NCBI GenBank assembly: GCA_949752745.1
Contig: OX457033.1
Span: forward strand, 18,391,907 to 18,455,906
DNA from: Protula sp. h YS-2021
Lineage: Eukaryota; Annelida; Polychaeta; Sabellida; Serpulidae
DNA: 64,000 bases
Direction of reading: 5' to 3'
Numbering within the stretch: the first letter of the stretch is position 1; each line of letters starts with the position of its first letter. The translations under genes and the position numbers were made by a program. The notes under the pieces are model-generated. The model had not been told where the DNA came from, searched no databases, and saw only the letters and a list, made by a program, of their open reading frames with translations. Below are positions 13,346 to 31,075 of the stretch, one piece after another.

Positions 13346-13351
13346 GTGAGA
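13346..13351. repeat. Polinton target-site duplication, left (GTGAGA)
   Basis: The six bases directly before the element start are GTGAGA, the same six as at 31070-31075 directly after its end. Six bp is the known Polinton duplication length. Confidence 0.95.
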
Positions 13352-13385
13352 AGTAGGGGAAAAGTGGGGGTTCAAAAACAGGAAG

Positions 13386-13450
13386 TGACGTCATAATGAC
13401 GTCACGAGGTGTTTTAGAAGCTCCATGGGGTTTCTAAAACAGTGACGTCA
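13386..13450. promoter_or_regulatory. Three TGACGTCA palindromes (CRE/ATF-type), left TIR
   Basis: Exact TGACGTCA occurs at 13386-13393, 13397-13404 and 13443-13450. The same three sites are mirrored in the right TIR. TGACGTCA is the consensus full site for CREB/ATF bZIP factors. Whether it works as a promoter element, a replication-origin site or a terminal-protein site is not shown. Confidence 0.7.
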
Positions 13451-13568
13451 TATGGACGTGGTATGGACGTGATATGGGTGTCATATGGTTGTCATATGGT
13501 TGTCATATGGTTGTCATATGGACGTCATATGGACGTCATATGAACGTCATATGAAAGTCATAATGACG
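13444..13568. repeat. 11-bp tandem array in left TIR
   Basis: About eleven consecutive 11-bp units of the form GTCATATGGAC/GTCATATGGTT lie directly inside the third CRE-like site. The period is exact and close to one DNA helical turn. The right TIR has the same array, inverted, with about one unit fewer. Confidence 0.9.
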
Positions 13569-14129
13569 TAATAGGGATAGTGGGCAGCCATTCAAACGGG
13601 CAGCCGGACAAATGGGCAGCCGGACAAATCAGCATCCGAACAAACGGACACCCGGACAAAAGGGTACCCGGAAACTCGAACACCCGAACACCCGGGCACT
13701 TTTTTTTTGCTTTCTCGCTCTCCAACCAAGCCATTGTGAAAGCAATTAAAAACCGAGCAAGCATTGAGATGAGAGCTCTCTCTCTCTCTTCATACATACA
13801 TAAGCAATTAAAACCGAGCAAGCACTGAGATGAGAGCTTTCTCTCTCCATACACATTACGGCATATACAGGCAACAACACTTTTTTACCTTTTTCACTCT
13901 CCAAACACACATAACACCTACGGCAACCGGACAAACAAACATCCGGACAAACGGACAGCCGGACAAACGGACAGTCGGACAAACGGGCAGTCGTACAAAC
14001 GGGTAGAGAGCTCTCCAACTGCTTTTTTTAAGCAGAGGGACTCATAGAGACATGGTTAGAGCTGGCCTGCCGGGTATTTCGACCCAACAATGACGTCGCA
14101 CAGATCGACTTAAGCCTGCATGCGACCAA

Positions 14130-14350
14130 CTGATCGACAGGCCCCCCGGGGCCAGTTGCACGACAGGCCCCCCGGGGCCAGCCGACTTCCAGGCCTCCCG
14201 TGGCCAGCCGACTCTCCGACTCCTCGGAGCCAGTCGCACGGCCAGCATACACTGCGAGAATAACCACTCTATCTATGCTATGAGAGAGCTGATCGACAGG
14301 CCCCCCGGGGCCAGACGACCTTCAGGCCCCCCCGGGGCCAGCCGTACAGC
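14130..14350. repeat. Repeated GGCCCCCCGGGGCC palindromic units
   Basis: Several units of the form GACAGGCCCCCCGGGGCCAG alternate with short GCCGAC..CTTCAGG linkers. Each is self-complementary. The motif GTCGACAGGCC also appears in the divergent promoter spacer at 17.1-17.3 kb, so TIR and promoter spacer share repeat modules. Confidence 0.8.
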
Positions 14351-14439
14351 AGGTCGACAGCCCCCCCCCCCCCACCGCCAATCGACCTTTAAGCATACAC
14401 TGTGAGGATAGCCACTGTATCTATGAGTTGGTCGACCGG

Positions 14440-15215
14440 CCCCCAACCGCCAGTCGGGAACAGGCCCAAACCCCCCCCTACCGAAATCTCCCCGGCCCTA
14501 ACCCCCCGTCAAAATCCCCCGACTAAACCCCCCCGGGGGCCTAAACCGCCCCCCGACCCAAAACCCCCCGGTTCTCAGCTCTATTTTATATTTTGTAATT
14601 GCGATACATCCACTTTGTTAATTACACTTCAAATGCCCACTAAAGAGAACAGACAGCGTTTAAATTTGCAATTTCCAAACCACTGAGGGATTGATCATCT
14701 GTATAAAAGAAACTTCATAATCTATTTATGATAGCACTCAGTTTTTGAAATCGCAAATGCTCTTACGATGGATGAGTGTGTACACATTAAAAATTGCAAT
14801 TCATATGCCGGTTGCGAGATCAGTCGAGTTTACAAATTACAATTTCTCTTGCGGTAGATGTGATTTATATACATTGTAATTCACTTGAATGGGTAATTTA
14901 GTGACCCAGATTGCTGTGAAATATCATGCTACCATCATGGAATACATCGCATCTGCTAAAGGTAATTCAAAGATATTGTACCAAGGGCATTTGTACATAA
15001 AGAATAAAAAAAATCCGGCAAATGACTATGTTTCGTACGAGTGCGAAAAAGGGCGCCAGAACAAGTTAACATTACACATTTTCTTTGAGAACGGGGGAGG
15101 GGGGTTTGGGTCGGGGGGTTTAGGCCACCGGGGGGTTTCATTCGGGGGGGGGGGGTTGACGGGGGATTAGGTCCGGGGGGGTTTCGGTCGGGGGAGTTTG
15201 GGCCTAGACTCCCGC
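14440..15215. repeat. Inverted repeat with C-tract and G-tract arms
   Basis: The left arm, 14440-14575, is a series of CCCCCC tracts separated by TAAA, GTCAAAAT and GACC spacers. The right arm, 15085-15215, is its approximate inverse with GGGGGG tracts. The 0.5-kb core between them carries an FLYWCH-like ORF. The arms have strong G-quadruplex/i-motif potential. The block is absent from the right TIR, so it looks like an insertion. Confidence 0.75.
14889..15082 (+). pseudogene. FLYWCH zinc-finger-like fragment
   Basis: From ATG at 14889 about 65 codons read as ordinary protein, with SAKGNSKILYQGHLYIKNKK followed by a YVSYECEKGR segment. This resembles an FLYWCH finger: KG..L.Y.GxxY, then an aromatic before the Cys. 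The last His-containing strand is replaced by glycine codons where the frame runs into the G-tract arm, so the domain is truncated. FLYWCH fingers occur in MULE transposases and modifier-of-mdg4-like proteins. The match is short; chance or another KG-rich domain is possible. Confidence 0.4.
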
Positions 15216-16184
15216 CAGTCGACCTTCAGCCCCCCCCCCCCCCGCCAGTCGACCTTCAGGCCCCCCCCCGGGGCCAGCCGACTTTCCGACTCTCCGAGGC
15301 CAGCCGCACCGCAGGCCACTCTTTGTATACAAGCAACAACTTTTTGCTTGCTCGCTCTCCAAGCACACACCATCACTAATGGCTTGCCGTAGAAGCAATT
15401 AAAAATGAGCAAACTAATCCTTCCTTAAGGCAAGCTATTTTTAACCCAGAGCTCTCTCTCTCCATACATATAACGGTATATACAGGCAACAACAACTCTT
15501 TCTTTTTACCTTTCTCGCTCTCCAAGCACACATAACACCTACGGCAACCGGACAAACGGACAGCCGGACAAACGTACTGCCGGACAAATGGGCAGTCTTT
15601 TTTATTTTTCCTCTCTCTCCAGACGCATACACAGGCAACAACTCTTTTTTTCGCTTTCTCGCTCTCCAAACACACACCATCACTAATGGCTCTCCGCATA
15701 AGCAATTAAAAGTGAGCAGCCAATGCCTCCTTTAGGCAAGCTATTTTTAACCCAGAGCTCTGTCTCTCCATACATAAGCAATTAAAACCGAGCAAGCATT
15801 GAGATGAGAGCTCTCTCTCCATACACTCTTTTCTTTTTTAGCTTTCTCACTCTCCAAACACACATAACACCTACGGCCACCGGACAAACGGACACCCGGA
15901 CAAACGGACAGCTGGACAAACGGACAGTCTTTTTAATTTTTTCCCTCTCTCTCCACATACACATATATCAATAGCCACAACAGATTTAGCGTTTATTTCA
16001 TAAGGCAAGGTATTTTTAAACCCAGATAGTGATTTATAGACCCCTTTCTTTTTACTTTTTTAAGCATTTCGCACACTCTCATGCATACACACACATACCA
16101 ACACCATAACACGATAGCGTTTCATTTCGTAATAATGGGGGGGATGCTAAAAAGCAGCCGTGGAGGGATTTTCTTTCCTGGTCT

Positions 16185-17072
16185 TCACTTCCTCCTGCCG
16201 CCGCTTCCCCTGCCGCTGCCACTTCCCCTGCCGCTGCCGCTATCCTCCCTGCAGCCGGTCCTCCTCCTATGCGCCGCTACCCCGGCCCTGTTTGAGAAGA
16301 AACCTCTGCCCATGACGTTATAGAAATGGTGCTCGGACTTCATAGCCTCTGGGCAGGTCTGTTCGTGCACTCTCTTAGTAACTCCTACTTCAATCGAGAA
16401 GTGGCAGAAGTCACAGTACTGAATATTATCCATCGAATGCAAGAGCTGCACAACATCCTGGAGTTCTGACTCTTTGCTAGAGCCGTCCTCCAGTTTCAAC
16501 TCAACCAGTTCCGTGGTGTGGCCATAGTCGGAAGGCGACTGCATGAGGCTGAGGTCGATCGTTGGGATCTCCGAAATTCTAGCGATAGCGGCTGCTAGCT
16601 CATCCTCAGGAGCTGGTGGCGGACTGTCCGGCCTTGTAACGGTGGCGCTGGGTACGCGCCGCTGCCTCACTGTAACTGGTACCGCCGGCACCTTTCGGAC
16701 AGTCACATCAGGTTGCCTCGGACTTGCTTTCAGCGGAGTCGTCATCGTCGACGCTGTTGCTTTGGCAGGAGTCGCTTTGACAGGAGTCGCCGTCGTCATC
16801 GTCGCTGCTGTGGCTTTGGCCGGCGTTGCTTCCTGGCAGGGCGACGGGTCCCGGAACCTCTCAGGTAACAGCTCCCTCAGTCGCTTGTGGCCTTCCTCCG
16901 CCGCCCTGCCAAACCGCCTATACTCCTTCTGCTGTCTGGCCCTCTGAAAATCCCTCCACTTCTTGAAAAGAAACGTCTGGTGCTCGATGAAAATTTCCTC
17001 GAACAGATTCGCATCTTTATCCGAGAGATTATATCTCCGGCGACGCTCTGCATTTTTTTTATAGATGTTCAC
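16185..17072 (-). CDS. C2HC zinc-finger protein of unknown function
   Basis: An intact 295-codon ORF at the left end of the Polinton, start ATG at 17072. The N-terminal 70 residues are basic and helical (KKNAERRRRYNL, FKKWRDFQRARQQKEYRRF). Residues about 78-155 are low-complexity Ala/Thr/Lys/Pro repeats (ATPAKATA). Residues 220-240 form C-x2-C-x12-H-x3-C, a C2HC zinc finger. The last 20 residues are Gly/Ser/Arg. The design suggests nucleic-acid binding, but I recognise no family. It is transcribed away from the gene at 17360 through a shared 0.29-kb spacer. Confidence 0.7.
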   Translation of the reverse strand: MNIYKKNAERRRRYNLSDKDANLFEEIFIEHQTFLFKKWRDFQRARQQKEYRRFGRAAEEGHKRLRELLPERFRDPSPCQEATPAKATAATMTTATPVKATPAKATASTMTTPLKASPRQPDVTVRKVPAVPVTVRQRRVPSATVTRPDSPPPAPEDELAAAIARISEIPTIDLSLMQSPSDYGHTTELVELKLEDGSSKESELQDVVQLLHSMDNIQYCDFCHFSIEVGVTKRVHEQTCPEAMKSEHHFYNVMGRGFFSNRAGVAAHRRRTGCREDSGSGRGSGSGRGSGGRRK

Positions 17073-17359
17073 TTCTCAACGGTCAAAAGCAGACTGACTG
17101 CATAGAGTGCGAGGCTGCTATTATAAAGGGAGGGACCCCCCCTCCCCGCCAAGCGACCTTTAGCCACTGTATCTATGTGCTGGTCGACAGGTCCCCCCCC
17201 CCGCCAACCGACCTAGTCGACGCCCCCCCCCCCCGCCAGCCGACCTGGTCGACAGCCCTCCCCCCCCCCCGCCGATCGACCTTTTAGCCACTGGCTCACC
17301 AACAGTAGTATAAAAAGGTCCGTTCGATACCCCTATGGCCATTGCATTGTTAAAACACC
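17073..17359. promoter_or_regulatory. Divergent promoter spacer with C-tracts, left end
   Basis: Serves the minus-strand gene starting at 17072 and the plus-strand gene starting at 17360. TATAAAAA (17309-17316) lies 44 bp before the rightward ATG. An AT-rich TTATAAAG (17121-17128) is the candidate box on the left side. Between them are three C10-class tracts in units GTCGAC..CCCCCC..CCGCCAxCCGACC, the same vocabulary as the TIR. Confidence 0.6.
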
Positions 17360-17575
17360 ATGGAGACGTCTCGAAAAGCAAGAACGGCTAGCAACATGGA
17401 AATTGATAGGCTGTTCAGCAATGAAACAGTGTCTTTTACAGATGCAGTTTTAACTGCAGAGGAGACTGCTGCCTTCCTAAGTACACTAGCAGAAGCTGAA
17501 AAAGCCTTGGAGGGAGCATTAGGGGCTCCATCGGACGTGTCTACAGTACAGCAAAGAAAGCTGAGGAAGCGTTAG
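17360..17575 (+). CDS. Small Polinton ORF, unknown
   Basis: 71 codons from ATG at 17360, 44 bp after a TATA box. Sequence is mildly acidic with an alanine-rich helix (TAEETAAFLSTLAEAEKALEG). The end, QQRKLRKR, is basic. It stops 24 bp before the ATG of the next ORF, which is in another frame, so the two may once have been one gene. No family recognised. Confidence 0.45.
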   Translation: METSRKARTASNMEIDRLFSNETVSFTDAVLTAEETAAFLSTLAEAEKALEGALGAPSDVSTVQQRKLRKR

Positions 17576-17598
17576 GTGTTCCGCCATTACGGCAAGCA

Positions 17599-18435
17599 AT
17601 GCCAGATCCTGAGGGATCTGACTACCCGTTCTGGGTTGCAAACGCGCTTGTAAATGGTAGCGCCAAGCCACTTAGTACAAAGTTACGGGCGCATCTAGAG
17701 TATCTTGAGGAAGAAGAAGTGGTCATGTCAAGCGATGACGACAACGACGGTGACAACAACGACGACAACGACGACAGCGACGACAATGATGACAGCAACG
17801 ATGACGACAGTGACGACGATGACAAGCAGCTCAAATCTAAATTTGAATTGAGCAAAACTATTCCTGTTACTGAGGAAGACGTTATGCTGTTGAAACGAAA
17901 CTTTCAAGCAGTGATTCCTCTGATCGATTGCAACATTTTAAGTCGTTAATGTGAAGAAGTCTTTTTCGATCAACACACATACATGTACCTAACGGAAGAA
18001 GTGAACACTGTCATTCAGCTTATCTACATGCTAGAAGGAAACATAGAGCATCTTCCCGCGTCAGAGCCACAGTTCTCCGAAGCCGTTCAACTTATTAGAA
18101 GTCTTCATGAGGAACTTTTTAAGACTTTATGTCTACCGGCGCCAAAGTGTGTTGATGAGGATCGCGATTCCAAATGTGCAAAGGTCATGCTACATGGCTT
18201 CAAGTACCTTGCAGAACGTATTAAGGCGTATGATGTGATAGCTTACCTCTATGAGAAAGGACATTTCACCTTGCCAATGCTCTTTCAATGGATAATTGGG
18301 AGTCGCAAACGAGGAGACTTTTTAGTGATCGTCATGAGACAATCTCTAACAGACGGTTTGCCAACAGCCTTTCTGGATGGTTTCAACGAGATCACTCCGC
18401 GATTTTGCAAACATCTCATGAAAACATACATGTAA
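17599..18435 (+). pseudogene. Acidic-tract protein, interrupted by one stop
   Basis: The frame is open from ATG at 17599 to the stop at 18433-18435 except for TAA at 17947-17949. Residues about 48-75 are a nearly pure Asp/Asn/Ser run encoded by a GACGAC-type microsatellite (17735-17822). After the internal stop the frame continues with protein-like sequence rich in Leu/Glu helices (EEVNTVIQLIYMLEG, RSLHEELFKTLCL). No family recognised. It lies upstream of the packaging ATPase. Two separate genes cannot be excluded, because an ATG follows the stop at 17983. Confidence 0.45.
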
Positions 18436-18441
18436 TATCCA

Positions 18442-18449
18442 TATAAAAG
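18442..18449 (+). promoter_or_regulatory. TATA box (TATAAAAG)
   Basis: TATAAAAG ends 40 bp before the ATG at 18490, with a CAGTCATCATTC initiator-like stretch about 20 bp downstream of the box. The same TATAAAAG word precedes the PC4-like gene and PolB. Confidence 0.65.
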
Positions 18450-18489
18450 GAGTGAGGTGTCAAGTGCAGTCATCATTCAACGCGCAGCC

Positions 18490-19102
18490 ATGGAGAAGAC
18501 AAGCAGCTTTAAAATTAGTGCAAACTTAACCATTACTGTGGAGCATGGACAATTTTGGTTATTTATTCGAATCAAACGTGGAGATTGCTTTATCACCATC
18601 CTTGTGGAAGATTGTGTGCCTGAACTTAACAAGATTAGGCGACATTGGCTTCAAACTGTACTTAACGCAAACGAAGTGGCTTGAAGTCATTTCATACTTG
18701 GATATGCGCTATGTGAGTTTTGTGCAAACATCACTGTTTGAAGGGAAAGAATACAAGTATTACATCAACATGAATGATGGTGAATGGGAGACATTGCTTC
18801 AGGTGATGGATAGCATCAACTCAACCTTATTGCCATGTACGGAATGTCATGGCAAGAAACCTCCTATCAAGCTGCAAAAGGACAATCGGATGAAAGTGTC
18901 AAAGTTATCCAAGAAAAGACTGGCTGAAGTTCAATTGGAGAATATGGATGTGCAAAATCAAGTTGGACTTACCTGAGAATATTGTGGTGCTTACGGATAT
19001 GCTGAGGATTATGATTGTCACTGCCACAAGTACAATTGCAAGTTGTGTGAACCAGACAACTTCTGCAACAAGTGCGGCTCACTAACTGTTTCTGTGGAGT
19101 AA
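18490..19102 (+). pseudogene. Zn-cluster protein with repeated PC4-like motifs, frameshifted
   Basis: The ORF opens at ATG 18490, but the conserved-looking sequence passes to another frame by about 18600. That frame runs to TGA 18974-18976, then continues open to TAA 19100-19102. It shows three copies of a strand-turn-Trp-helix pattern: EIALSPSLWKIV, FKLYLTQTKWLEVI, YYINMNDGEWETLL. These resemble the last strand and helix of PC4-type ssDNA-binding folds. A C-terminal cysteine cluster follows, LPCTECHGKK and, past the stop, CHCH...C-x2-C...C-x2-C. Single-stranded DNA binding is inference. Confidence 0.45.
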
Positions 19103-19166
19103 GACTGAGAGTCATTTGCTTACCAGCTATCATAGTGTGCAGACGTGTTATATGAACATGTGAAAG

Positions 19167-19478
19167 ATGGATGCAGAAACGTGTTTCAAGGAGAAGTATG
19201 CGGACTACATGATAAGTGAACTGGCACGTTTTGGATCTATTCAACAACAACTGCATCACTTTGACATTTATTGGGAACTTGCTCATTCCACGTTGAACGT
19301 ACCAAACTTACGCGAGGATTTCATCAAAGAGTGTGTGCTTTCAAACATTGACGGAGCTGAGGAGTTTGATGTGGAAGCAGCACATCACTTCGCTCGATTG
19401 TGCAAAAAAACAAATTGTGAAGAAATGTTATTAGCTGTAAATGTTATGGCTCTATGCAGCAGATCAGCCTTTGCATAA
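19167..19478 (+). other. ORF upstream of the ATPase remnant, unknown
   Basis: 103 codons from ATG 19167. Charged and helical with paired acidic residues (NIDGAEEFDVEAAHHFARL). It overlaps the ATPase remnant by 38 bp in another frame. It stands where the Walker A half of the packaging ATPase is expected but contains no GxxGxGK[ST]. It may be a separate small gene whose end has been fused to the ATPase by a deletion. Confidence 0.4.
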
Positions 19479-19941
19479 GGGAATGAAAGGTGTGGAATTT
19501 TACCAAGGCATTCCAGATAACATTGAAGAGTGTTTTAACCCAAGAAAACCAAACTTACTCATCATTGATGACTTAATGACCAAATGTCATAGTGATGAGC
19601 GTATGATACGTCTCTTTAGTGTTGGCAGCAGTCATCAAAATCTAAGTATTATTTTTATTGTGCATAATTTGTTTCATCATGGTCGATAAATTCGAAATAT
19701 TAGTTTGAATACACATTACATCATTCTGTTTAAAAATCCTAGAGACAGCCAACAAATAAGTACATTAGCGCGGCAAATGTATCCTGGAAAATCTCAATTT
19801 CTCATAGAAGCCTATCAAGATGCTATCAGCAAACCTCATGGCTATTTATTCATTGATTTGAAGCCGAAGACGAATGATCAACTACGTATTCGTACAGGTT
19901 TTTACCAAAAGATACACATTACGTATATGTTGATCAAGTAG
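19441..19941 (+). pseudogene. FtsK/A32-type packaging ATPase, C-terminal half
   Basis: The genome-packaging ATPase of Polintons uses ATP to load DNA into the capsid. Here only the second half remains. PNLLIIDDLM is the Walker B strand, followed by the sensor region IIFIVHNLFHHG and, after an in-frame TAA at 19687-19689, a NxHYIILFKNPRD segment and ARQMYPGKSQFL, all typical of the family. The N-terminal half with Walker A is absent in all frames just upstream. Truncation plus the stop make it non-functional. Confidence 0.85.
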
Positions 19942-19983
19942 CGTATGAACAAGAACCAAGTCACTTGACCATTCGCAGCCAAG

Positions 19984-20310
19984 ATGTCTAAACGTATTCA
20001 AGCGAATCAACCTTTTCTTCACTTGCTCGCACGCAGCGGGTCTAAACGACGTAAATCTTTGTTACAACAAGCTACTAATGAGGAATTAACTAGCTTGTTT
20101 GAAATTTGTTTGAATATATTGCGAGGACATTTACCCTTAAGCTCAAAAAGGTATAAGGAATTCAAGTGTGAACGTCATACCCTACGCACACTGGCAGATA
20201 AGAAGATATCACTTCGAAGAAAAAAGAAATTGGTTAATCAGAAAGGAGGATTCACTGGATCTATTGCTAAATGTGCATTACCTTTGTTGGCTCAGTTGTT
20301 GTTAAAATGA
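19984..20310 (+). CDS. Basic pX/pVII-like small protein
   Basis: An intact 108-codon ORF from ATG 19984. It has a basic head, a predicted helix EELTSLFEICLNILRGHLPL, a KKISLRRKKKLVNQKGGF basic stretch and a hydrophobic tail CALPLLAQLLL. Proteins of this plan (helical RG motif, then Arg/Lys, then GGF) recur in Polintons and relatives between ATPase and capsid genes and are thought to be core or minor virion proteins. Its TGA overlaps the next ATG (ATGA, 20307-20310). Confidence 0.65.
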   Translation: MSKRIQANQPFLHLLARSGSKRRKSLLQQATNEELTSLFEICLNILRGHLPLSSKRYKEFKCERHTLRTLADKKISLRRKKKLVNQKGGFTGSIAKCALPLLAQLLLK

Positions 20311-20895
20311 AACATACTTTGAAAATGGTCCTCATTCCTGAATATGAATATAAAATGTTAGAAAAGAAGGGAAAAGATGTTGAAATCAAAAACTAAAGTG
20401 AATAAACTTTTACGTGGGAAACGAAATCGTGAAAAAGCAATAGAAATGTCTCAAGTGCTTGGACGTCATTTACGAACAATTCAATCACAACAATAACGAC
20501 AAAAGTCTGTTACAGCATCTAATGCAGAAAAATCAGAAAAGTTCCAACAGTTTCTAAACCATTTTCAATCTATTTATCATGTAAAACTAACACAATTTCT
20601 GGCAGAACTTAAGAAATATGGTACGAGATGGACAGATAAAAATAAACTTGTTTTAAAAACGGGTACTGTCATTACAAATTCTAACATTATTGATTTGTTG
20701 AAAGAAGCATTGGTTGCTACAAAAAGAAAAGAACGACGAGAACCACCACGTGGCTGGAAGCAGTTTATTGAGGGAATTGTAGACGCTAATATTCCAAAAA
20801 CTGTTTTTGGCAAAAAGACAACTCGTGAAGATATTACAAAAGAGATACAACAACGTCAACAAAGGTTGTTTCCAGAAGGATGGGAAACTTTTTAA
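20307..20895 (+). pseudogene. Conserved Polinton capsid-block protein, broken
   Basis: Starts with ATG at 20307 inside the ATGA overlap. The first ~28 codons (MVLIPEYEYKML-type start) pass to another frame near 20380; that frame has TAA at 20494-20496 and then runs open to 20895. The C-terminal part has KKYGTRWTDKNKLVL, NIIDLLKEAL, PPRGWKQFIEGI and IPKTVFG, the recurrent pattern of a conserved Polinton protein in this position whose function is not established. One frameshift and one stop. Confidence 0.65.
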
Positions 20896-21089
20896 CATGG
20901 ATTAAAGAGTTATGGTGTTGTTGTTGTAAAGAAAATGGAAATAAAAATACTATTCCTGTAAAAATTAGATGTGTTAGTGCTTGTTGTCAGGGAGAAGTAG
21001 TAGATACCAATGTAGATCATGTAGATAGCAATTTAGACAACAATGTAGACAGCAATGTAGAAAGTGAGGATGATGAGTGTCAAACATGA
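20880..21089 (+). CDS. Small MG...CCCC acidic-tailed protein
   Basis: 69 codons from ATG 20880, overlapping the previous frame by 16 bp. It starts MGNFLTWIKELWCCCC, i.e. a Gly-2 suited to N-myristoylation and four adjacent cysteines suited to palmitoylation. Another CC follows at residues about 35-36. The tail is acidic with a D-N-V/L-D repeat and no basic cluster. Membrane anchoring is inference from lipidation-type motifs. I do not know a named family. Confidence 0.55.
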   Translation: MGNFLTWIKELWCCCCKENGNKNTIPVKIRCVSACCQGEVVDTNVDHVDSNLDNNVDSNVESEDDECQT

Positions 21090-21143
21090 AGTAATGTATA
21101 TGCACATCTAGTCTATCTACATCGCATAAACGATTTAGCTGTC

Positions 21144-22214: not shown

Positions 22215-22216
22215 TC

Positions 22217-23410
22217 ATGTCTTTAATTCATAATCATTCTTGTGAATGTAGCCTTTCTCCATTAGAATGGTTTCACATACCACCAACGCAAACTGCTGTA
22301 GAAAAAAGTTATAATGTAGAATATCAACCAATGACTACCATTAGAGAGGGTACTCCAATAGAATTCTACATTCCTGCGAGTAAAAGAAGAATATCTAGAT
22401 TTAAAGAACAGTAAACTCCATATTGTATGTCGCATTGTAAATGCTGATGGAACACTGTGTGGTGTAGATGATAATGTGTCATGTATCAATGATTTGTTTA
22501 ATGGGTTGTGGTCCAATATTGAACTATTTCTAAATGATCGTTTGATATCACATAGTAACAATACCCATGGTTATACCAGCATCATATCTCATCTCATTCA
22601 TGACTCGGAAGAAAGTCTCCATTCTGAGCGCTCTATGCGTCTCATCTTTAAAGATACTGCCGGGTCAATGAATACTCATGAGTTGAAAAGACCTAATCAT
22701 GAAAGATATGTATCAGGTTTTCATGTAAATGCTGATGGCGGCGATCTAGCTGAAACAGGAAATAGTGGTGTACATAATCGCTATTTGTATACATGTCTAA
22801 GCCGTGAGTTTATGCTTACAGTTGGTTTAAGGGTAGATTTGTTTAAGCGGCATCGTTATCTTCCCAATGGTGTTAGTATGAAATTACGTTTACATAGACA
22901 AAAAGATGAATATATATTAATGGCTGCAAATAATGGTTTTAAAGTAGAAGTGAGAGAAGCGTTTTTAACCATTCGCAAAGTGAGGGTTAGTCCAGGTATT
23001 CCATAATGAGAAATCCATACAATTTTGAACATTTTAATCTTAACTTTATGCAGCTTTACTCTGATGGCGAACCAGTCCTATCCAAACCTCTCAAGCTTGA
23101 TATAAATCGAGGCAAATATCTTGATGCTTTTGAAACTCTTTACAAATCTTTTGATAGATTGGATGGTGAGAAAAGTTCCATTATAAAACGGGAAGATTGG
23201 CCTAGAGGTTATTCTTTATTTTCTTTTGACTTAACACCTGATTATGATGGTGCTGATCATTATGCCCTTATCAAACATGGGAATTTGAGACTAGAAATGA
23301 ATTTTGCTGGTGCCTTGCAAAATACAGTCAATGCTATAGTGTATGCTGAATTTGATAACATTGTTGAAATAAGTGCAAATCGTAGCATTCAATTCGACTA
23401 CCAGTCATGA
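22217..23410 (+). pseudogene. Major capsid protein (hexon-like), broken in three frames
   Basis: Double jelly-roll capsid protein. Segment 1 (ATG 22217 to ~22380) has the N-terminal PIEFYIPAS block. Segment 2 (to TAA 23004-23006) has FLNDRLISHSNNTHGY and RLIFKDTAGSMN, both characteristic. Segment 3 (23006-23410) has NPYNFEHFNLNFMQLYSDGE and the final strands. The frame changes near 22380 and at 23004-23008. The connecting region normally present between segments 2 and 3 seems to be missing, so an internal deletion probably created the TAATG junction. Confidence 0.85.
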
Positions 23411-23844
23411 ACACGAAGCAGATAGAAGCCATACTATCCCGTGATGCCGCGACAAAAGACTTGTTTCAAGGTGTGTTTGCCATGGACCAGTTACCATCTT
23501 TACAACGCGGTGCCTATGTCATCAACACAGACGATCATGATGAGCCAGGAGAGCATTGGGTGGCAGTATATTATGACGAGGACCCTGCAGAATATTTTGA
23601 CTCTTATAGACTTTTACCTATAGACAGTCGTTTGAATAAGTTTTTAAAGTTTAATTTCATTTATAATTCAGTTCCATTACAAACACCGATACCATCTACA
23701 TGTGGATTTTATTGTGTGTATTATATAATTCAAAGAGCTCGAGGACATAGTCCGTTTGAAATCATTGATGTATTAAGAAGAAGTGATGGTGACTTTGTTG
23801 TAAAGGATTTTGTATATAGACATTATAAGCCATTATTTAATTGA
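23407..23844 (+). CDS. Adenain-like cysteine protease (C5/Ulp1 fold)
   Basis: Virion maturation protease. An intact 145-codon ORF from ATG 23407, overlapping the major-capsid stop by ATGA. GEHWVAVYYD holds the catalytic His50, EYFDSY the acidic Asp65, and PSTCGFYCVYYI the nucleophile Cys99 with the usual aromatic following. A Gln (residue 92) precedes the Cys as expected for the oxyanion hole. Length is short compared with adenovirus proteases but usual for Polintons. It is the last rightward gene; AATAAA lies 67 bp beyond its stop. Confidence 0.9.
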   Translation: MNTKQIEAILSRDAATKDLFQGVFAMDQLPSLQRGAYVINTDDHDEPGEHWVAVYYDEDPAEYFDSYRLLPIDSRLNKFLKFNFIYNSVPLQTPIPSTCGFYCVYYIIQRARGHSPFEIIDVLRRSDGDFVVKDFVYRHYKPLFN

Positions 23845-23910
23845 TGCTGTATTAGTTAAGTTGTATTAGTTAAGTTATTGGTAATTGCTAATTTTATTAT
23901 GGATATTCTA

Positions 23911-23916
23911 AATAAA
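23911..23916 (+). terminator. Poly(A) signal of the rightward virion block
   Basis: AATAAA 67 bp after the protease stop codon, followed by a T-rich stretch at 23939-23948. Confidence 0.65.
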
Positions 23917-23993
23917 CAAGACAGTTTTATACAACATTCTTTTTTTATTGTGTTATACATTATTTACATTTTAACAATTGTTTTACATTAAAC

Positions 23994-23999
23994 TTTTAT
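23994..23999 (-). terminator. Poly(A) signal of the leftward block
   Basis: AATAAA on the minus strand, about 35 bp beyond the stop of the ORF ending at 24035. It faces the rightward signal at 23911 across about 80 bp, giving a tail-to-tail junction. Confidence 0.6.
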
Positions 24000-24034
24000 T
24001 TCACAAATACATTCAATATATCGATAAACAAGTG

Positions 24035-24619
24035 CTATTCATTCCAATCTAAATTAATATATGTATCAAAGACATTACACCAACGTTTGTAAATGCTATG
24101 AAAACTAGCATAACACTGTCCATTACCAAACTTTATTATTTTAACATCTTCGTGTTCAGACAGTTTCAGTTCATATCCATGATCATTCATGTCAATGTCC
24201 ATCACCATAACACACATGGAATGTGTTAGCTCAATGGACTTGGTGCCCCGCATGAATTGCACTCCTTCCTCTTTGAATTCAAGCGTCAGGTTCTTTCCAA
24301 TCCAATGCTTGCAACAGAGCGTACCATTCCACTGTGTTGAGGGTGAGTAGTCGTAGCGTTCTGTAAGCTCGTCATATTGGCGAAATCGTACAAACACGTC
24401 GAGACAGTTTTCAGTCACACGCACTTCTAAATCCTCTGAGAGTATTAGGAGAAAGCCAGGTATCCTCAACTTCTCTAGATGGTCTTTCAACACAGATTGT
24501 TCGTCAGTTGATAGAATGATATACTTTCCAAAATGTCGTAGCACAATGTCATCACATAAGTTTCTCAGATATGAGAATCCATTTGTAATTGGTTCATATT
24601 CCGATAAAAAGTCTTCCAT
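24035..24619 (-). CDS. Unknown Polinton protein, about 194 residues
   Basis: Open from ATG at 24619 (MEDFLSEYEPI...). Acidic, with alternating hydrophobic and charged residues suggestive of beta structure (LEVRVTENCLDVFVRFRQY, IIKFGNGQCYASFHSIYKRW). No known motif, signal or membrane segment. It sits between the PC4-like gene and the poly(A) junction, where Polintons often carry variable genes. Confidence 0.6.
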   Translation of the reverse strand: MEDFLSEYEPITNGFSYLRNLCDDIVLRHFGKYIILSTDEQSVLKDHLEKLRIPGFLLILSEDLEVRVTENCLDVFVRFRQYDELTERYDYSPSTQWNGTLCCKHWIGKNLTLEFKEEGVQFMRGTKSIELTHSMCVMVMDIDMNDHGYELKLSEHEDVKIIKFGNGQCYASFHSIYKRWCNVFDTYINLDWNE

Positions 24620-24673
24620 CTCGTTCAACAGTCAGATCAACTGTGAGCTGTCTCCTTGTCAGCAAAGACGTTT

Positions 24674-24925
24674 TTATGCTCGCAAGATGGTGAAGAGTGG
24701 ATGTTGTATAGCTTCTAGGAATCGTAAGACTGCGCGCCAGTTCTTCATATCAAAGTGAATCATATCTGCATATGGATTATCTGGCACAACTCTATGATAA
24801 TCCAGTGGATAATCCTGTAAAAGATTTTGTATGTTAGAATTATGTTCAATCACATACACTTCAACTTTATTTTCAAGTCTGCGTTTAAACCCAGGTTTAA
24901 GCGATATGTTTTTAAAGTCTTTCTA
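24674..24925 (-). pseudogene. Open stretch without start codon, unknown
   Basis: About 80 codons open, ending in YADMIHFDMKNWRAVLRFLEA and a stop at 24674. No ATG in frame; a stop lies just upstream near 24926. MKNWRAVLRFLE resembles a strand-helix end but is not diagnostic. Either the decayed end of a gene or an exon. Confidence 0.35.
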
Positions 24926-25022
24926 CACTTCAGGTTTAAACCGGTAATCAGAAATTATCCTATTATTACTTCATTCCTCCCATTTACAGTAAGGTAAGCA
25001 CCACCGTTAAACATGAGTGCAT

Positions 25023-25361
25023 TCATGATGAGAATACCTTGTTATGAGCCGTCTTCTTGTCTTCGAAGCCTTTTATCCACTTCTTCACTTGCTTCTTCAA
25101 CATTTTCCATTCAGGTATTGTTAACAAAATACCCTTTTTCATAGGACGGTTTCTTCCAGTCCCCTCATCTCTCAGGTACTTGCGAATGTTTACCACTCCT
25201 CCATTGCTTTGTTTCATAATCTTGATATACTTTCCATTTCTTAGAGAAAGCATTCCATCCCACGACTGTGGTGTTGGTGCCGTCTCCACTTTTAAGTCTT
25301 TAACTATATCTGCAAGAGTATCCATATCAGTTGCAGATCTCTTACGACTTCCATGTTCCAT
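25023..25361 (-). CDS. PC4-like ssDNA-binding protein
   Basis: 112 codons from ATG 25361. Residues about 40-92 fit the PC4/Sub1 fold: a strand with GKYIKIMKQSNGGVVNIRKY, a charged loop, then MKKGILLTIPEWKMLKKQV, where the KKGI-L-T-xxxW-xxL pattern is the family's hallmark. PC4-type proteins bind single-stranded DNA and melted promoters, which would suit protein-primed replication. A TATAAAAG (25416-25423, minus strand) ends 54 bp upstream and overlaps the PolB stop. Function in the element is inference. Confidence 0.7.
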   Translation of the reverse strand: MEHGSRKRSATDMDTLADIVKDLKVETAPTPQSWDGMLSLRNGKYIKIMKQSNGGVVNIRKYLRDEGTGRNRPMKKGILLTIPEWKMLKKQVKKWIKGFEDKKTAHNKVFSS

Positions 25362-25415
25362 GTTAACCCTTCAATGTTCACACCTCAAATAACTCTTACG
25401 TTGGAGGACCTCCCC

Positions 25416-25423
25416 TCTTTTAT
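25416..25423 (-). promoter_or_regulatory. TATA box of the PC4-like gene
   Basis: TATAAAAG on the minus strand, 54 bp before ATG 25361. It overlaps the stop codon of the upstream PolB gene (25420-25422), so the promoter is embedded in the neighbour's end. Confidence 0.6.
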
Positions 25424-28400
25424 ACCACAGCCTTATAATGTCCATGAGCTAAGGTGGAAAAGGCATCATCCAATACATATCGTTTGTCATCATATGGGGA
25501 GAGGGCTACCTTTCTCAATTTCTCCGAGAAAAGCTGGTGACTATGACTTCGAATAATGTGTCCTGTAGCCATTGTTTGAGTTTTCTTGAACAAACTGTCT
25601 CTATACTGCACATGTTTAATACGTCTTTGACAAGCTTGCGTGATGCCTTTAGCTATATGTTTGTCTTTCCCGCCACACAATAAACTGTACATTTTCGGTC
25701 TGAGTTCAACAAACTCTTCAATAGGGATGCCTGCCGTCTCATCTTTCATTTTCCCAAGCACTTTTTTGTTCACGTTGGAATGTAGGAAGTGATCCCGCCG
25801 ATAGTCACTTGTATCGAACAGGTCAGCATCTTGCTGCATATCCTTGTAGATATCTTCCGTTTCTATGTCGTAACATAGACTGTCGGTGTCGCTGAACAAC
25901 AACTTGGCATTGGGATACTTGACCATGATGTAGTTGTAATGAAAGTTGAACATAAGCACTTTGCTGAGGTCGAGAATGGTGAAGCCAACTTGAATGGGTT
26001 TATCCAAAAGCAAATCCACTTTGCGCAAATGTACAGCGGTCAAATCTTCGTTGAAAATTTTGAATTTGTGGAAAGAAGGTTTGGCTACAAGTTTCTTGAA
26101 CCGCTTTTCCTTGTGAACCAGTTCAACATTGATTCGCTTTCTCACATTGTCCATGGTTTTAACAAACACAGAGTTGTTCATCAGTTTGAAGAAGTCTTTC
26201 TCAAACGGGTTCTTGGCCAATTTTCTCTTTTCCGTGTTCAAGGTAATGTATTTTGCCAACCATTTGCTCTGTTTAAACATGATGGCGCGATGTACTTTGG
26301 TGACTTTCAACCCGAGTGAGACGTACTGTTGTAAATTCCTGTAATGAAGTACATATTTCTTCTTGTCAGACAAGTTAGGAATGAGGTTTTCACTGGGTTT
26401 GTCTTTCATGTTCAGATCTTTCCGCAGCTTCTGACTGTACTCTGACAATTCTCCAACTTTGACACATTTCCGTTCTGGAGCCACTGGGTAGTGATTATGA
26501 TGATCATGGATTCAATTTGGATATTCTAAATCCACTTCCAAAATGAATCCAATGTCATCATCTTCAGCTACATCCATGAAGTCGAGGGATTCTGGCTCGC
26601 TCACCGACATAAATCCTCTTTCCGCAATGCTTTGTGACATGGCCCGGCCATACAAGTCGTTTGCGTCGAGGTACATCAGAGAGTTGTTTGGTATCTCAGA
26701 ATTGCAATCTGCTACGTAGGGATTATTTGATTTCGCATACTTGTGTGTGATCACAGATATTCCTCCACGTATGCCTTGCTCAACCATTTGGTACATTTCA
26801 ATGTCATTAATCAATTCCAACTTCACCTTTGTCGCTTTTAACATTGCATCCCACGACAGTACAGGATCCAATTCATACGTATTGAGGCACACTTGACGAA
26901 AATTTTCAAACACGTTAGCTAGTAATAACACAACTGATTTCAGGTATAGGTCGTGGTATTCACCAAATATGGTACAGTTGAATGTATCCCACACCTTCTG
27001 CGCATGCGCATAATCCTCATCGCTAATGTCCTCTTCGCTAAGCTGACTATAAAACTTGTCATTTTTTATGCAACAAATCTTGTTGATCACTATCGTGAAT
27101 GTGAGAGGTCATGTTGTAGAAGTTATCTGTCCCTTCTGCTGCAAGGTTGGATACCAACTTCTGTAGAGAGGTACTTATGAACTGGAAGCTGTCTCTAAAT
27201 TTCAGATTGCTCATGGTGAATGCAATATATTTCTCAATGGTGTTGGGAATGACTGTAATCGTTTCACCTTTGAATTTCCCGATTTCCTCCATGATTAGGT
27301 GACTGTCATTGCCTCGCAAATTGTGGAAAAACACGGGAATGATAAAAGAGTGTTTATCCTCTTGCTTATCCTTTCTAAGTCGAAATTGCAAGTTGCATTC
27401 ATTATGTGCAACCCAAAGTTATTTGCCATTGATGTGGTCATGATCTCTCACACAATCTGCTCCTAGAGGTTCATGACAAATGTAGCAATCAACAGCGTTC
27501 TTGAAATTCTCTTTGTCTTCACAAGTCATCACCATTTCCTTTAGCCGCTCTAAACCACGTACAATACGATCACGTTCATTCACCATATGGTCTAAAAAGA
27601 CTTTTACAGCATTGTCTCCTCGATACACGACTGGTGCACGTGTGTCGTACTGGCTCACAACCACATAGGCAAAGCTGTTTGGACGATGATGTTGATACTT
27701 GTCCCCTTCTTCATGCTTTTGCGTGAAACATTCAAAGTCGGCATAAATCACAAAAGGCGTTCGCTGTTGTTTAGCTACATTCCTGAACTTGATGAAGGGT
27801 TCCTTGGGAAATGATAAACGTTGTGCTCCATTCTTGTCACACACTTCACGATGTTTATCTAAAAGATCTTGTCGTACAAACCCGTGAAGACAGTTGAAAC
27901 AATAAAAATATGCACACTTATGCTTTGATCGATAGCACATAAGTGTGCTAAAATTCTTGATGAGGCAGTAATGCCTCGTCTTATCATTGCTAATCTGAAG
28001 TAAGTGGATTTCTCTCGCACTGACGTTTCGACTAAGTTGTATTGGAACAACTACATCTTGTTCATATCCAAACACTTTAATGGCTACATCGTTCTCCTTT
28101 TCTTTGGAATGCCAGTAATTGGTGTCGGAAATGTCATACCCTCTACCTTTAATTCCGTCTCAAATGGCTTGTAATGATTCACGTGATTTGGGTTGCCGTC
28201 ATGAGGGTGAAGGTAAGCCAATACTGACCATAAGAAACACTTGTTGTCATCATTCTTAATGTTTATCACACAATTTGTTTTCTTCACTTTCTTCGGTAGT
28301 GGAATAAAACTACTCGCTTCCAGAGGCACCAACATAGCTGTGTGTACTTAAATGTACAGTATGTTATCCAATACCCAGCAAGAGTCTTGTCGCGCATGTT

Positions 28401-29031
28401 CGTCAAACTTAGTAAACAATTCTTTATAGGCTTCTGGCAAGTCCTGTTCAATATCTGCTGGATTGTATGCTGTATATGTTGGACTGCTGATGAAGGCATT
28501 ATCCACTTGTTCTACCATAACACCTTCAGCATTTGCTGTCAGTTTCTTGTAACGTGCATGCACTACAATATACCATTTCATTCCATGGTTTAAGGTCTAA
28601 ACAAATGTGCGTTGATACGGTTCTCTTGCTGTCGCATTTCAAGCAGTAAATCCGATCAATCCTCAGACTGAAACCGTTTTTCCTGCGCGTTTTCACCAAG
28701 ACTAACCCTTCTACCTCTACTTGTCCTGTCTTTTGTTTCTTTGAAACATGTTCTTCATGAGTCACATTTTCCATCTTAGCTGGTATGCATGCGTGTGCTT
28801 CATAAGTATCCATAGATGGAAATTCCACATTGCATTCAGTACACGGAACTGGACCGTATGGCCAAATGTCATCTTCTTCCATCTTTTGTCTCTTTGCTCC
28901 TTTCCCATGCTCTTCAACAGCATGTTTCACTAAAGTTTTCATCTCAGCTTTACTACATGTATGTGTCTCATAAGTATCCATAGATGGAAATTCTACATTG
29001 CATTCCGTACACTGAACTCTTCACGTTTCAT
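25420..29031 (-). pseudogene. Protein-primed DNA polymerase B with N-terminal zinc fingers, broken
   Basis: The Polinton replicase. From ATG about 29031 come tandem fingers of the form C-x2-C...EFPSMDTYExHxC (28.8-29.0 kb), then the N-terminal block with NDDNKCFLWSVLA (28.3 kb), Exo I YADFEC (27.73 kb), a Cys/His insert near 27.45 kb, Exo II FFHNLRGNDSH (27.30 kb), Exo III region (26.94 kb), motif A LDANDLYG (26.66 kb), motif B FKLMNNSVFVKT (26.17 kb) and motif C SDTDS (25.89 kb). At least three frame changes and three in-frame stops (near 28348, 27419 and 26512) break it. The Exo III Asp reads Val and the motif B Gly reads Val. Confidence 0.9.
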
Positions 29032-29100
29032 CTTAGCTGGTTGTTGTTGTTCCGTCAACTGCTGAAACTGAAGTGCTGAAATGTAATCTCAGACATCCCC

Positions 29101-29108
29101 CTTTTATA
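29101..29108 (-). promoter_or_regulatory. TATA box of the polymerase gene
   Basis: TATAAAAG on the minus strand, 70 bp before the first PolB-frame ATG at 29031. Same octamer as at 18442 and 25416. Confidence 0.6.
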
Positions 29109-29181
29109 CACACTCATGCATAGACAGAATTTGCGTTTTCATTTCACAACAGAGGATGGTCCTTAGAAGGACCGAAAAATG

Positions 29182-29551
29182 TTAGTAGGTTGGCTCTTCA
29201 CCAACAAGTCGGGTTTCCGCAACTACACTGGTATCTGTAAAAACTGCTCCATCGTGAAAGGTCTTCTTGAGCACTTGAAAGGATGAAAATTGTAATATTT
29301 GATGCTTCTCAGCGTTGCACCGCACCACCAGCAGTCTGTGCTTGGCTCTGGTCCAGGTAATGATGCCGTAAACTTGTACCATAGCAAACCACCATAGGTT
29401 TGCAACAGTACCGACGAGGTGCATTGTGGTGTACCGGGCAGTTGTGTGGTTCTCCTGGATATTCTAACCACACCCAACACTTGTGGCATTCTGTTGTCAG
29501 CGTCACTGCCTTGCCGTTTCGCATCACTGTGATTGTACGAGTTGTGGACAT
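29182..29551 (-). pseudogene. Small Cys/His protein, probably frameshifted
   Basis: From ATG 29551 the first frame runs 80 codons with ECHKCWVWLEYPGEPHNC and PVHHNAPRRYCC, a compact Cys/His cluster (C-x2-C-x12-C-x2-HH) likely to bind zinc. A second frame (29424-29182) continues with more natural-looking sequence (IITWTRAKHRLLVVRC, AVFTDTSVVAE) to its own stop, so a frameshift near 29390 is likely. No family recognised. Confidence 0.45.
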
Positions 29552-29817
29552 CGTGCTGCTTGTTTTGGGAAATGTGGCCTTTAACCCCCATTTATATACT
29601 ACTACATACTAGCGGCCATCCTCGCAGTATATGCTGGCCACGGGGGGGGGGGTCCTGACAGAGCACATCTATGAGCACCGGGGGGAGGGGGGTCCTGACA
29701 GAGCACATCTATGAGTACCCGGGGTGAGGGGGGAGGGGGGTCCTCACTTGAGGTGGTATATAACTGCTAGTCATTTCAGTTCAGGCTCACAACCGCTTTG
29801 CAACTGCTTCCGTAAAC
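29552..29817. promoter_or_regulatory. Divergent promoter spacer with G-tracts, right end
   Basis: TATATAAA on the minus strand (29591-29598) lies 39 bp before the leftward ATG 29551. TATATAA (29757-29763) lies 54 bp before the rightward ATG 29818. Between them is a 40-45 bp unit repeated about 2.5 times, G-tracts followed by TCCTGACAGAGCACATCTAT. The layout mirrors the left-end spacer at 17.07-17.36 kb. Confidence 0.65.
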
Positions 29818-30369
29818 ATGGAGTGCTACTTTGCCTTGAATGATGCGCTGACATTGAGAGAAGTGAGGGAAGTTCACGTGCCAGTGACTCCGCCAGCAAC
29901 ACCGCCACACCGCTTCTTCTTCTATCAGCTGCTGCCGGACCCAGCTAACAGCTCAGTACTATGCCTGCCTGTGTTTTTTGATAGGATGGTGACTCTCGGA
30001 AAGCGACTGCGTGATATTGAGGCTAGACATTATGACCAGGCATTTTTCAGATCCATGATGCTGGGGAAGGCAATTCCCTCCCGCCTGGAGGAAGAAGAGT
30101 ACCCGGCCTGGGGAAGATTCTACTTGCAGCAGGAACTTGAATTCTGTATTGGATGCGGGTGTATGCTCTCCCCAGACCGGGTATTGGCAGAATGCGGGCA
30201 CCAACTATGCATATACTGTGCATCTCTCTGGACGCAGCTAACAGCCTTGCACGACGGCTACACGATCCGGTGCTTCTATTGCGGTGTATCAAGCGATCAC
30301 TTCCTCTTCAATGGTCAACAGTTAACCCAGTGCAGCAGACCAGTCCAAGATGTGGTGGAGCTTTACTGA
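29818..30369 (+). CDS. RING-finger protein (candidate E3 ubiquitin ligase)
   Basis: Intact 183-codon ORF from ATG 29818, 54 bp after a TATA box. Residues 110-155 give C-x2-C-x12-C-x-H-x2-C-x2-C-x17-C-x2-C, a complete C3HC4 RING-HC arrangement with CGH at its centre. The N-terminal 100 residues (proline-rich start, hydrophobic FFFYQLLP, charged helix) match nothing I know. RING proteins usually pass ubiquitin from E2 enzymes to substrates. It is the last gene before the right TIR, the usual place for accessory host-interaction genes. RING status is strong; ligase activity is inference. Confidence 0.7.
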   Translation: MECYFALNDALTLREVREVHVPVTPPATPPHRFFFYQLLPDPANSSVLCLPVFFDRMVTLGKRLRDIEARHYDQAFFRSMMLGKAIPSRLEEEEYPAWGRFYLQQELEFCIGCGCMLSPDRVLAECGHQLCIYCASLWTQLTALHDGYTIRCFYCGVSSDHFLFNGQQLTQCSRPVQDVVELY

Positions 30370-30867
30370 GTCCGGCAGCAGAAACAGACCTTCGGCCCTT
30401 CTAAGGGCCACCCACTAATACGAAATAAGCGCTAATCGTGTCATGGCGTTAGTATGTATGTGTATGCATGAGAGTGTGGGAAATGCTAAAAAAAAGATAT
30501 ATAAAAAAAATTTAGAAAAGGGGGGCTATTTGTATACCCCTATTTATACCCCTTTTGACTTTAAGGGGGCCTTATAGGTGAGCTCTAACCATGTAGCTAT
30601 GAGTTCTCTATTTATAAAATGGAGAACTTATATTTGGGGAGGTGTCCCATCTGTCCGTCTGCCCACGTTTGCCGTAGGTGTGATGGAGAGAGAGAGCTCT
30701 CTGCGGTTAAAAATAGCGTGGCTTAAGGAAACATTGCTTGCTCACTTTTAATTGCTTTTGCGATGGCCCGGTTGATCCTTTTCTTTTTACGAAGGCCCGT
30801 TTGCCCCGGCTGCCCGTTTAACCCGCTGCCCGTTTGAATGGCTGCCCGTTTGAATGGCTGCCCACAC

Positions 30868-30978
30868 ATTATGACGTTCATGTGACGTTCATATGACGTC
30901 CATATGACGTCAATATGACAACCATATGACAACCATATTACACCCATATCACGTCCATATCACGTCCATATGACGTCA
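30868..30978. repeat. 11-bp tandem array in right TIR
   Basis: About ten 11-bp units (inverse of GTCATATGGAC/GTCATATGGTT) ending at the CRE-like site 30971-30978. One unit fewer than the left array. Confidence 0.9.
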
Positions 30979-31035
30979 CTGTTTTAGAAACCCAATGGGG
31001 CTTCTAAAACACCTCGTGACGTCATAATGACGTCA
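30971..31035. promoter_or_regulatory. Three TGACGTCA palindromes, right TIR
   Basis: Exact TGACGTCA at 30971-30978, 31017-31024 and 31028-31035, mirroring the left TIR in number and spacing. Confidence 0.7.
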
Positions 31036-31069
31036 CTTCCTGTTTTTGAACCCCCCCTTTCCCCCTACT

Positions 31070-31075
31070 GTGAGA
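31070..31075. repeat. Polinton target-site duplication, right (GTGAGA)
   Basis: Identical to 13346-13351 at the other end. Confidence 0.95.

What the first reader, a model, noticed from the sequence alone, without database searches (positions are those of the whole stretch)
13346..31075. Complete-ended Polinton with perfect 6-bp target duplication
Both ends are exact: AGTAGGGG...CCCCTACT inside GTGAGA on each side. That fixes the element at 17,718 bp and allows every gene inside to be assigned to it. Most Polintons in invertebrate assemblies are fragmentary, so a bounded copy is useful for reconstructing the lineage.
Basis: seen in the sequence. Interest (0 to 1): 0.75.

Follow-up and report, generated by a model that had tools for sequence, protein, structure and literature searches.

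The report
Bounded but broken Polinton, integrase lost
This is an old virus-like jumping element (a Polinton) whose insertion point can be fixed to the base, because a related stretch of the same chromosome still shows the site without it; this copy has lost its integrase gene and other genes in it are broken, so it is an ordinary fossil of a known kind.

Summary
In the same genome 29 of 30 other inspected family ends begin at the same terminus, in unrelated flanks apart from one local duplicate. Five copies with both ends in hand have flanking 6-mers matching 6, 6, 6, 5 and 4 of 6. A paralogous empty site about 65 kb away has one GTGAGA. By gene content it is a Polinton/Maverick.

The copy is bounded but not complete. 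Nine of nine siblings covering the place hold, wholly or in large part, a segment that encodes an rve integrase and, in some, a chromodomain and the ATPase front. The window copy lacks it; its scar was found at full length nowhere else among 40 scored places. ATPase, capsid gene and PolB are broken too.

Side finding: close siblings' cores differ by K2P 0.02-0.09, but a right-end gene falls into three groups 0.33-0.49 apart, suggesting exchange of terminal genes.

The parts
13346..13351 (.). left target-site duplication GTGAGA
31070..31075 (.). right target-site duplication GTGAGA
13352..31069 (.). Polinton element, 17,718 bp
13352..13623 (+). left terminal inverted repeat, with an 11-bp GACGTCATATG array
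30806..31069 (-). right terminal inverted repeat, with the same array
14889..15167 (+). short open frame with FLYWCH zinc finger, left accessory region
   Evidence: PF04500 E 3.6e-6, 27.5 bits, above curated cut-off 23.6
16185..17072 (-). left-end accessory ORF, 295 aa, no family; divergent between copies
17500..19399 (+). block of short frames of unknown function; an acidic low-complexity stretch gives only sub-cut-off Pfam hits
19399..19441 (+). deletion scar: against sibling L021, 81 bp and 1,571 bp are missing on either side of about 41 retained bases; the missing part holds the rve integrase, chromodomain and ATPase Walker A region in L021
19441..19938 (+). packaging ATPase, C-terminal remnant, in-frame stop at 19687-19689
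   Evidence: Pox_A32 E 0.011, below cut-off; front part of three siblings hits Adeno_IVa2, E 7e-9 to 5e-8
19969..20307 (+). small ORF conserved in siblings, unknown
20497..20892 (+). small ORF conserved in siblings, unknown
21090..21903 (+). probable penton (minor capsid) gene in two frames; named by position upstream of the capsid gene, no accepted family match
   Evidence: position rule for virophages from PMC4028283 passages
21879..22211 (+). small basic ORF, unknown
22362..23407 (+). major capsid gene (double jelly-roll), in two frames; 126-183 bp missing at 23001/23004 against 9 of 9 siblings that span the place
   Evidence: fold of natural relative P0002
23386..23844 (+). adenovirus-like protease, open frame
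   Evidence: Peptidase_C5 E 0.0084, below cut-off; dN/dS 0.19-0.53 against siblings
24035..24628 (-). ORF of 197 aa, unknown, conserved in siblings
25023..25370 (-). PC4-like ORF
   Evidence: PF02229 E 1.8e-8, above cut-off
25420..28347 (-). protein-primed DNA polymerase B in pieces: in-frame stops at 26512-26514 and 27419-27421, frame changes near 27060-27108 and 28087-28159, 70-76 bp missing near 27059-27070 against 9 of 9 siblings that span the place
   Evidence: DNA_pol_B_2 E 3.5e-4 on one piece, below cut-off. That 28087-28347 belongs to it is by a recalled motif only
28529..29020 (-). C2H2 zinc-finger ORF
   Evidence: PF13912 E 1.2e-5, just above cut-off
29764..30369 (+). right-end accessory ORF, RING-like; three divergent groups among copies
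   Evidence: zf-C3HC4 E 0.087, below cut-off

Best explanation
The feature is a single integrated copy of a Polinton/Maverick. A linear double-stranded DNA made by protein-primed replication was inserted by an rve integrase through a cut staggered by 6 bases, which copied GTGAGA to both sides (mechanism inferred from the family; the TSD, the inverted ends and the empty paralogous site are shown). After insertion this copy most likely decayed at its own place (inferred): two deletions removed the integrase and the front of the ATPase, and further deletions, frame changes and stops broke the capsid gene and PolB. Without an integrase gene it cannot insert again by its own proteins. It belongs to a family with many copies in this genome, whose close members have cores about equally distant from one another and whose two terminal accessory regions seem to be of mixed ancestry.
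For: Ends and TSD. Inverted repeat. Family ends coincide in 29 of 30 others. Empty site with one GTGAGA, aligned through the junction. Gene content: the modelled capsid relative hits double jelly-roll capsids; PolB, protease and ATPase pieces; PC4. The integrase segment is held wholly or in large part by 9 of 9 siblings covering the place and is absent from the window element: no protein hit there below E 0.9, with L030 as positive control. The scar matches at full length only in the window copy, 291 bits against 109 for the next. TIR arms differ at 12 of 200 bases and flank paralogues by about 13-20%, in keeping with an insertion after the flank duplication and time for decay.
Against: Several gene assignments are weak one by one (PolB, protease, ATPase and RING are below curated cut-offs). 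The capsid model has mean pLDDT 51 and its TM-scores are at most 0.38. One search scored 40 of 2,054 first-look candidates, so a second copy with the same scar is unlikely but not excluded. One copy (C10:41.40 Mb) aligns across the place of the smaller deletion at 85% and was not followed up. The empty site is a paralogue, not the allele. Not every short frame was scanned: one search lists 175 frames of 45 aa or more, and 104 were scanned.
Confidence: 0.93

Rival explanations
1. The integrase-less form is a non-autonomous Polinton that moved with its deletion, using integrase supplied by siblings.
For: It has intact ends and a perfect TSD without an integrase gene of its own, and integrase-bearing siblings exist.
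Against: The scar is found at full length at one place only among 40 scored. The copy also carries separate breaks in PolB and the capsid gene, and its TIR arms have diverged at 12 of 200 bases, as expected of decay in place.
Confidence: 0.06
2. The boundaries are a chance match or belong to a nested repeat, not to one element.
For: 25 pairs of 6+8 matching bases occur in the window.
Against: 275-column inverted repeat, coincident ends in other copies, TSD control, empty site.
Confidence: 0.01
3. The missing integrase segment is an assembly error rather than a true deletion.
For: No reads were available, and repeats with many copies can be misassembled.
Against: The loss is in two steps with about 41 retained bases between them, and other deletions of different size lie elsewhere in the copy.
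Confidence: 0.04
4. The strong divergence of the right-end gene between copies reflects homogenisation of the core by gene conversion, or fast local change, and not exchange of accessory modules.
For: Gene conversion could keep cores alike. Few copies were compared (ten sequences at the RING-like gene, two of them a local duplicate pair).
Against: Synonymous divergence is 1.4-1.6 in the RING-like gene between the window copy and four copies of the second group, against 0.05-0.18 in PolB pieces for the three of these four that cover PolB. The alleles fall into three groups.
Confidence: 0.35

Closest known systems
Polinton/Maverick elements (class Polintoviricetes), as described for vertebrates in PMC8097293 (passages seen)
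   Same: 6-bp TSD, TIR within the reported 46-1,447 bp, length within the reported 12.7-24.6 kb, AGT-type end motif, capsid-morphogenesis genes, pPolB, two gene modules on opposite strands pointing to the centre, accessory regions at both ends, mostly degraded copies.
   Different: This copy lacks the integrase and the front of the ATPase. Termini read AGTAGG rather than (AGT)2. PC4-like and FLYWCH frames are present. In sibling L021 the integrase is directly followed by the ATPase on the same strand, whereas in the vertebrate elements the ATPase is in the module with PolB.
Adintoviruses (as discussed in PMC11071296, passages seen)
   Same: rve integrase with C-terminal chromodomain, seen here in sibling L021.
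   Different: No particle or free genome; only integrated, decayed copies were seen.
Virophages (mavirus)
   Same: Capsid fold match; an rve integrase in mavirus is recalled, from no call.
   Different: Lies in a eukaryotic chromosome with retroelements around it, with Polinton-type ends and gene order; no link to giant viruses was tested.

Membership tests
Polinton/Maverick | 6-bp target-site duplication | tested here: met
Polinton/Maverick | terminal inverted repeats beginning AG | tested here: met
[quoted passage not shown]
   DNA_pol_B_2 on one piece, E 3.5e-4, below cut-off; broken gene; protein priming itself not tested
Polinton/Maverick | rve integrase | tested here: not met
   absent from this copy by deletion; the segment is present wholly or in large part in 9 of 9 siblings covering the place, rve confirmed by Pfam in three of them and by tblastn in L030, so the family meets it
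Polinton/Maverick | packaging ATPase | tested here: met
   remnant only in this copy, Pox_A32 E 0.011 below cut-off; front part in three siblings Adeno_IVa2 E 7e-9 to 5e-8
Polinton/Maverick | adenovirus-like cysteine protease | tested here: met
   Peptidase_C5 E 0.0084, below cut-off
Polinton/Maverick | double jelly-roll major capsid protein | tested here: met
   fold of relative P0002, low-confidence model; 49 of the 50 listed matches are capsid or capsid-scaffold proteins of this fold (fold of the entries recalled)
Polinton/Maverick | single jelly-roll penton | tested here: inconclusive
   named by position only; no accepted Pfam match
Adintovirus | virion or free viral genome | not testable with these tools
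   only chromosomal copies seen

The most novel reading that the evidence does not exclude
The family is a recombining pool: one shallow, recently amplified core (replication, integration and capsid genes) circulates with several old, deeply diverged alleles of terminal accessory genes (a RING-like gene on the right, an unknown gene on the left). Distinct Polinton lineages would then have met in the same cells and exchanged end modules, as recombining viruses do, before copies were frozen in the chromosomes.
Probability: 0.55. Interest if true: 0.5.

Novelty: new member of a known kind. Interest (0 to 1): 0.3.

Why it matters
Here the same chromosome supplies the empty site, siblings supply the family ends, and a control supplies the chance level, so the insertion is fixed to the base and does not rest on the ends alone. 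The case also warns that perfect ends and a perfect TSD do not mean a complete gene set. The contrast between a shallow core and deep terminal alleles, if it holds over more copies, would make recombination between Polintons testable from fossils in one genome.

Tried and rejected
Searches for relatives of the capsid protein in IMG/VR and in prokaryote genomes found none. PHROGs gave two weak hits to families of unknown function on PolB pieces, nothing more. PDB sequence searches with the capsid gave only chance-level hits. No relatives at E 0.001 were found for the RING-like ORF (62 candidates) or the 24.0 kb ORF (30 candidates). An intron reading of the missing segments was considered and rejected for the capsid gap, because natural relatives encode that stretch as protein. 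The row PolB_b was dropped because 17-20 codons are stops in each sibling there, which shows that its frame is shifted. One search returned empty tables (a bad BLAST setting) and was replaced. A count of family copies (pattern search) did not complete, so copy number is only a lower bound: 40 TIR places scored (two of them the window's own ends) and 39 other places (38 on contig C1, where the list ran full).
Full report
What was claimed and what is there. Searches show exactly this: TSD at 13346-13351 and 31070-31075, element 13352-31069, 17,718 bp. The two ends align as an inverted repeat over 275 columns at 86%. Both arms carry an 11-bp GACGTCATATG array.

Is it more than chance? The end pattern alone would not be: 25 pairs of 6+8 matching bases lie 5-30 kb apart in the window (20 printed, many from repeat arrays). 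Three further results settle it. First, the window lies in a held genome of 863 Mb, where the left TIR gives 40 scored places (of 2,267 candidates; two are the window's own ends). I looked at 31 of these ends, one of them the window's own. Of the 30 others, 29 begin at the same terminus, some with one or two substitutions; L008 does not reach it. The outer flanks (up to 300 bases, with the window's right flank added) are unrelated to each other at E 1e-5, except L036/L037, which are 99.7% identical and 8.2 kb apart, so a local duplication. Second, five copies have both ends in hand: the window copy GTGAGA/GTGAGA, C5 GTATAG/GTATAG, C1 AAATAT/AAATAT, C10 at 35.79 Mb ACCAGT/TCCAGT, and C6 GGGCAA/ATGCAA. 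Partner scores are 6, 6, 6, 5 and 4. Of 373 non-partner pairs none scored 6, one scored 5 and eleven scored 4 (four ends left out), so the C6 case is weak by itself. Third, the joined flanks with one GTGAGA find C10:18488115-18488302, on the other strand about 65 kb beyond the element. There the sequence runs ...CCCACAACAGTGAGAT...ACACCACGATATGC... with one GTGAGA and no insert, at 84% identity across the join. Flank homology goes on at 80-87% over several further pieces, among them 626 columns at 87% on the left. This is a paralogous empty site.

What kind of element. Pfam supports PC4 (E 1.8e-8), C2H2 (1.2e-5) and FLYWCH (3.6e-6) above cut-off, and PolB (3.5e-4), protease (0.0084), ATPase (0.011) and RING (0.087) below cut-off. 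The capsid frame has 30 natural relatives among 153 candidates in the protein collection. A model of relative P0002 is of low confidence (pLDDT 51) and TM-scores are low (at most 0.38), but 49 of the 50 listed matches are capsid or capsid-scaffold proteins of Faustovirus, Sputnik, mavirus, vaccinia D13, PBCV-1 and others, the exception being a BcsB entry. Together with the ends this is a Polinton/Maverick. The gene set named in the introduction of PMC11071308 (that section read) is pPolB, rve integrase, cysteine protease, ATPase and two capsid proteins.

What is missing. No integrase was found in the 104 frames scanned inside the element (one search lists 175 frames of 45 aa or more). Comparison with siblings explains it. 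Between window 19399 and 19441 the siblings C6 and C5 carry 1,696 and 1,445 bp more, and C10 a similar stretch. That segment encodes an rve domain (E 4.2e-11) and a chromodomain (1.7e-7) in L021, partial rve frames in L024 and L026 (5e-5 and 7e-5, below cut-off), and in all three an ATPase front (Adeno_IVa2, E 7e-9 to 5e-8; Walker A motif read by eye). Nine siblings have fetched sequence over the place and all nine hold the segment wholly or in large part: C6, C10, C5, L029, L030, L031, L038, L040, L042 (the smallest share is 1,111 of 1,696 bp in L031). L030 has its own loss in the ATPase front. The integrase and ATPase-front pieces of L021 do not match the window element (no hit there below E 0.9); the best hit in the window, at 49290-49529 (E 2.9e-5), lies in the Gypsy-like element. 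L030 as a control matches the two integrase pieces at E 9e-120 and 2e-84. Against L021 the loss is in two steps, 81 bp and 1,571 bp, with about 41 bases kept between them and a few shared bases at the joints. A search with the scar finds full length only at the window copy (291 bits). The next place, C10:41.40 Mb, has 109 bits over 101 bases at 85% and may share the smaller deletion; it was not followed up. On C1, 37 places show the two parts apart, about 81 bp in those I checked (40 of 2,054 candidates scored). Loss after insertion is the simplest reading, not a proof.

Other breaks. Nine of nine siblings that span the place have 126-183 bp more in the capsid gene at 23001/23004, and nine of nine have 70-76 bp more in PolB near 27059-27070. 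PolB also has two in-frame stops and frame changes, and the ATPase remnant has an in-frame stop. Stops and indels occur in sibling frames as well; I did not rank copies.

Age and selection. The TIR arms of the window copy differ at 12 of 200 bases, those of C6 at 8 of 200, C10 at 11 of 189 (22 gaps) and C5 at 14 of 199. Cores of close siblings differ from the window copy by about 0.02-0.09. Against the two divergent copies (L033, L041) the protease has dN/dS 0.19-0.24 and the PolB pieces 0.10-0.20; against close siblings the same pieces give 0.17-0.74. Other pieces are less clear: the penton-like, small basic and 17.9 kb frames reach 1.3-1.8 against some close siblings, with few synonymous changes. 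This fits selection on genes while elements replicated and decay afterwards, but does not prove it.

Mosaic ends. In 750-bp bins the window copy is 0.02-0.09 from close siblings between 17.5 and 28.7 kb. Two copies (C1 inner and L033) are 0.10-0.24 away there and are not counted as close. At 16.0-17.5 kb six of seven copies covered are 0.12-0.23 away, and in the 29.5 kb bin eight of nine are 0.11-0.34 away; the exception on both sides is C10 at 35.79 Mb, 0.03-0.09 throughout. C6 is only 0.06-0.11 away on the right. At the RING-like gene ten sequences fall into three groups (window, C6, C10; L034-L037; L032, C1 outer, C5) that are 0.33-0.49 apart, while within groups distances reach 0.19; PolB of the eight of these copies that cover it is 0.03-0.08 apart. 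Synonymous divergence in the RING-like gene is 1.4-1.6 between the window copy and four copies of the second group, against 0.05-0.18 in the PolB pieces of the three of them that cover PolB. The most direct reading is exchange of accessory ends between lineages. Gene conversion of the core is a live alternative. PMC8097293 describes accessory regions flanking the core (passages); in the passages and listing that I saw I found no account of allele exchange, but this is not a claim that none is in print.

Known or new. The architecture, ends, TSD, size and decay match the descriptions in PMC8097293 (passages), and an integrase with a C-terminal chromodomain is described for adintoviruses (PMC11071296, passages). 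It is a new member of a known kind. The host was not identified; chromosome sizes were seen but no names are given.

Noticed in passing
L039-L042 (G000:C1:1382434-1418433): A second, more divergent Polinton-like copy (about 81-86% identity in its pieces, opposite orientation) lies inside a bounded copy, interrupting it near window-equivalent 20.4-21.3 kb.
   Followed up: partly
L036 and L037 (G000:C1:30451082-30469283): Two copies 8.2 kb apart with 99.7% identical outer flanks: a local duplication of a Polinton end, not two insertions.
   Followed up: partly
13444-13577 and 30870-30977: TIR arms carry arrays of GACGTCATATG, containing ATF/CRE-like TGACGTCA motifs (name recalled); could be a replication or promoter signal.
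   Followed up: no
13593-16000: The left accessory region is full of 8/16-bp repeats such as CCGGACAAACGGACAG and of CCCCGGGG-rich units, variable in order between copies.
   Followed up: no
G000:C10:41398977-41399069: One other copy aligns across the place of the smaller (81 bp) deletion at 85%; shared or independent loss not resolved.
   Followed up: no
46047-50226: Ty3/Gypsy-like retroelement with a frame of 1,252 aa (features read by eye).
   Followed up: no
4295-7792: BEL/Pao-like retroelement remnants (by eye) on the minus strand.
   Followed up: no
55889-57910: Frame of 673 aa with leucine-rich repeats and a membrane-like segment, resembling a Toll-like receptor (by eye).
   Followed up: no
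38335-42369: Long arrays of a 51-bp tandem repeat.
   Followed up: no
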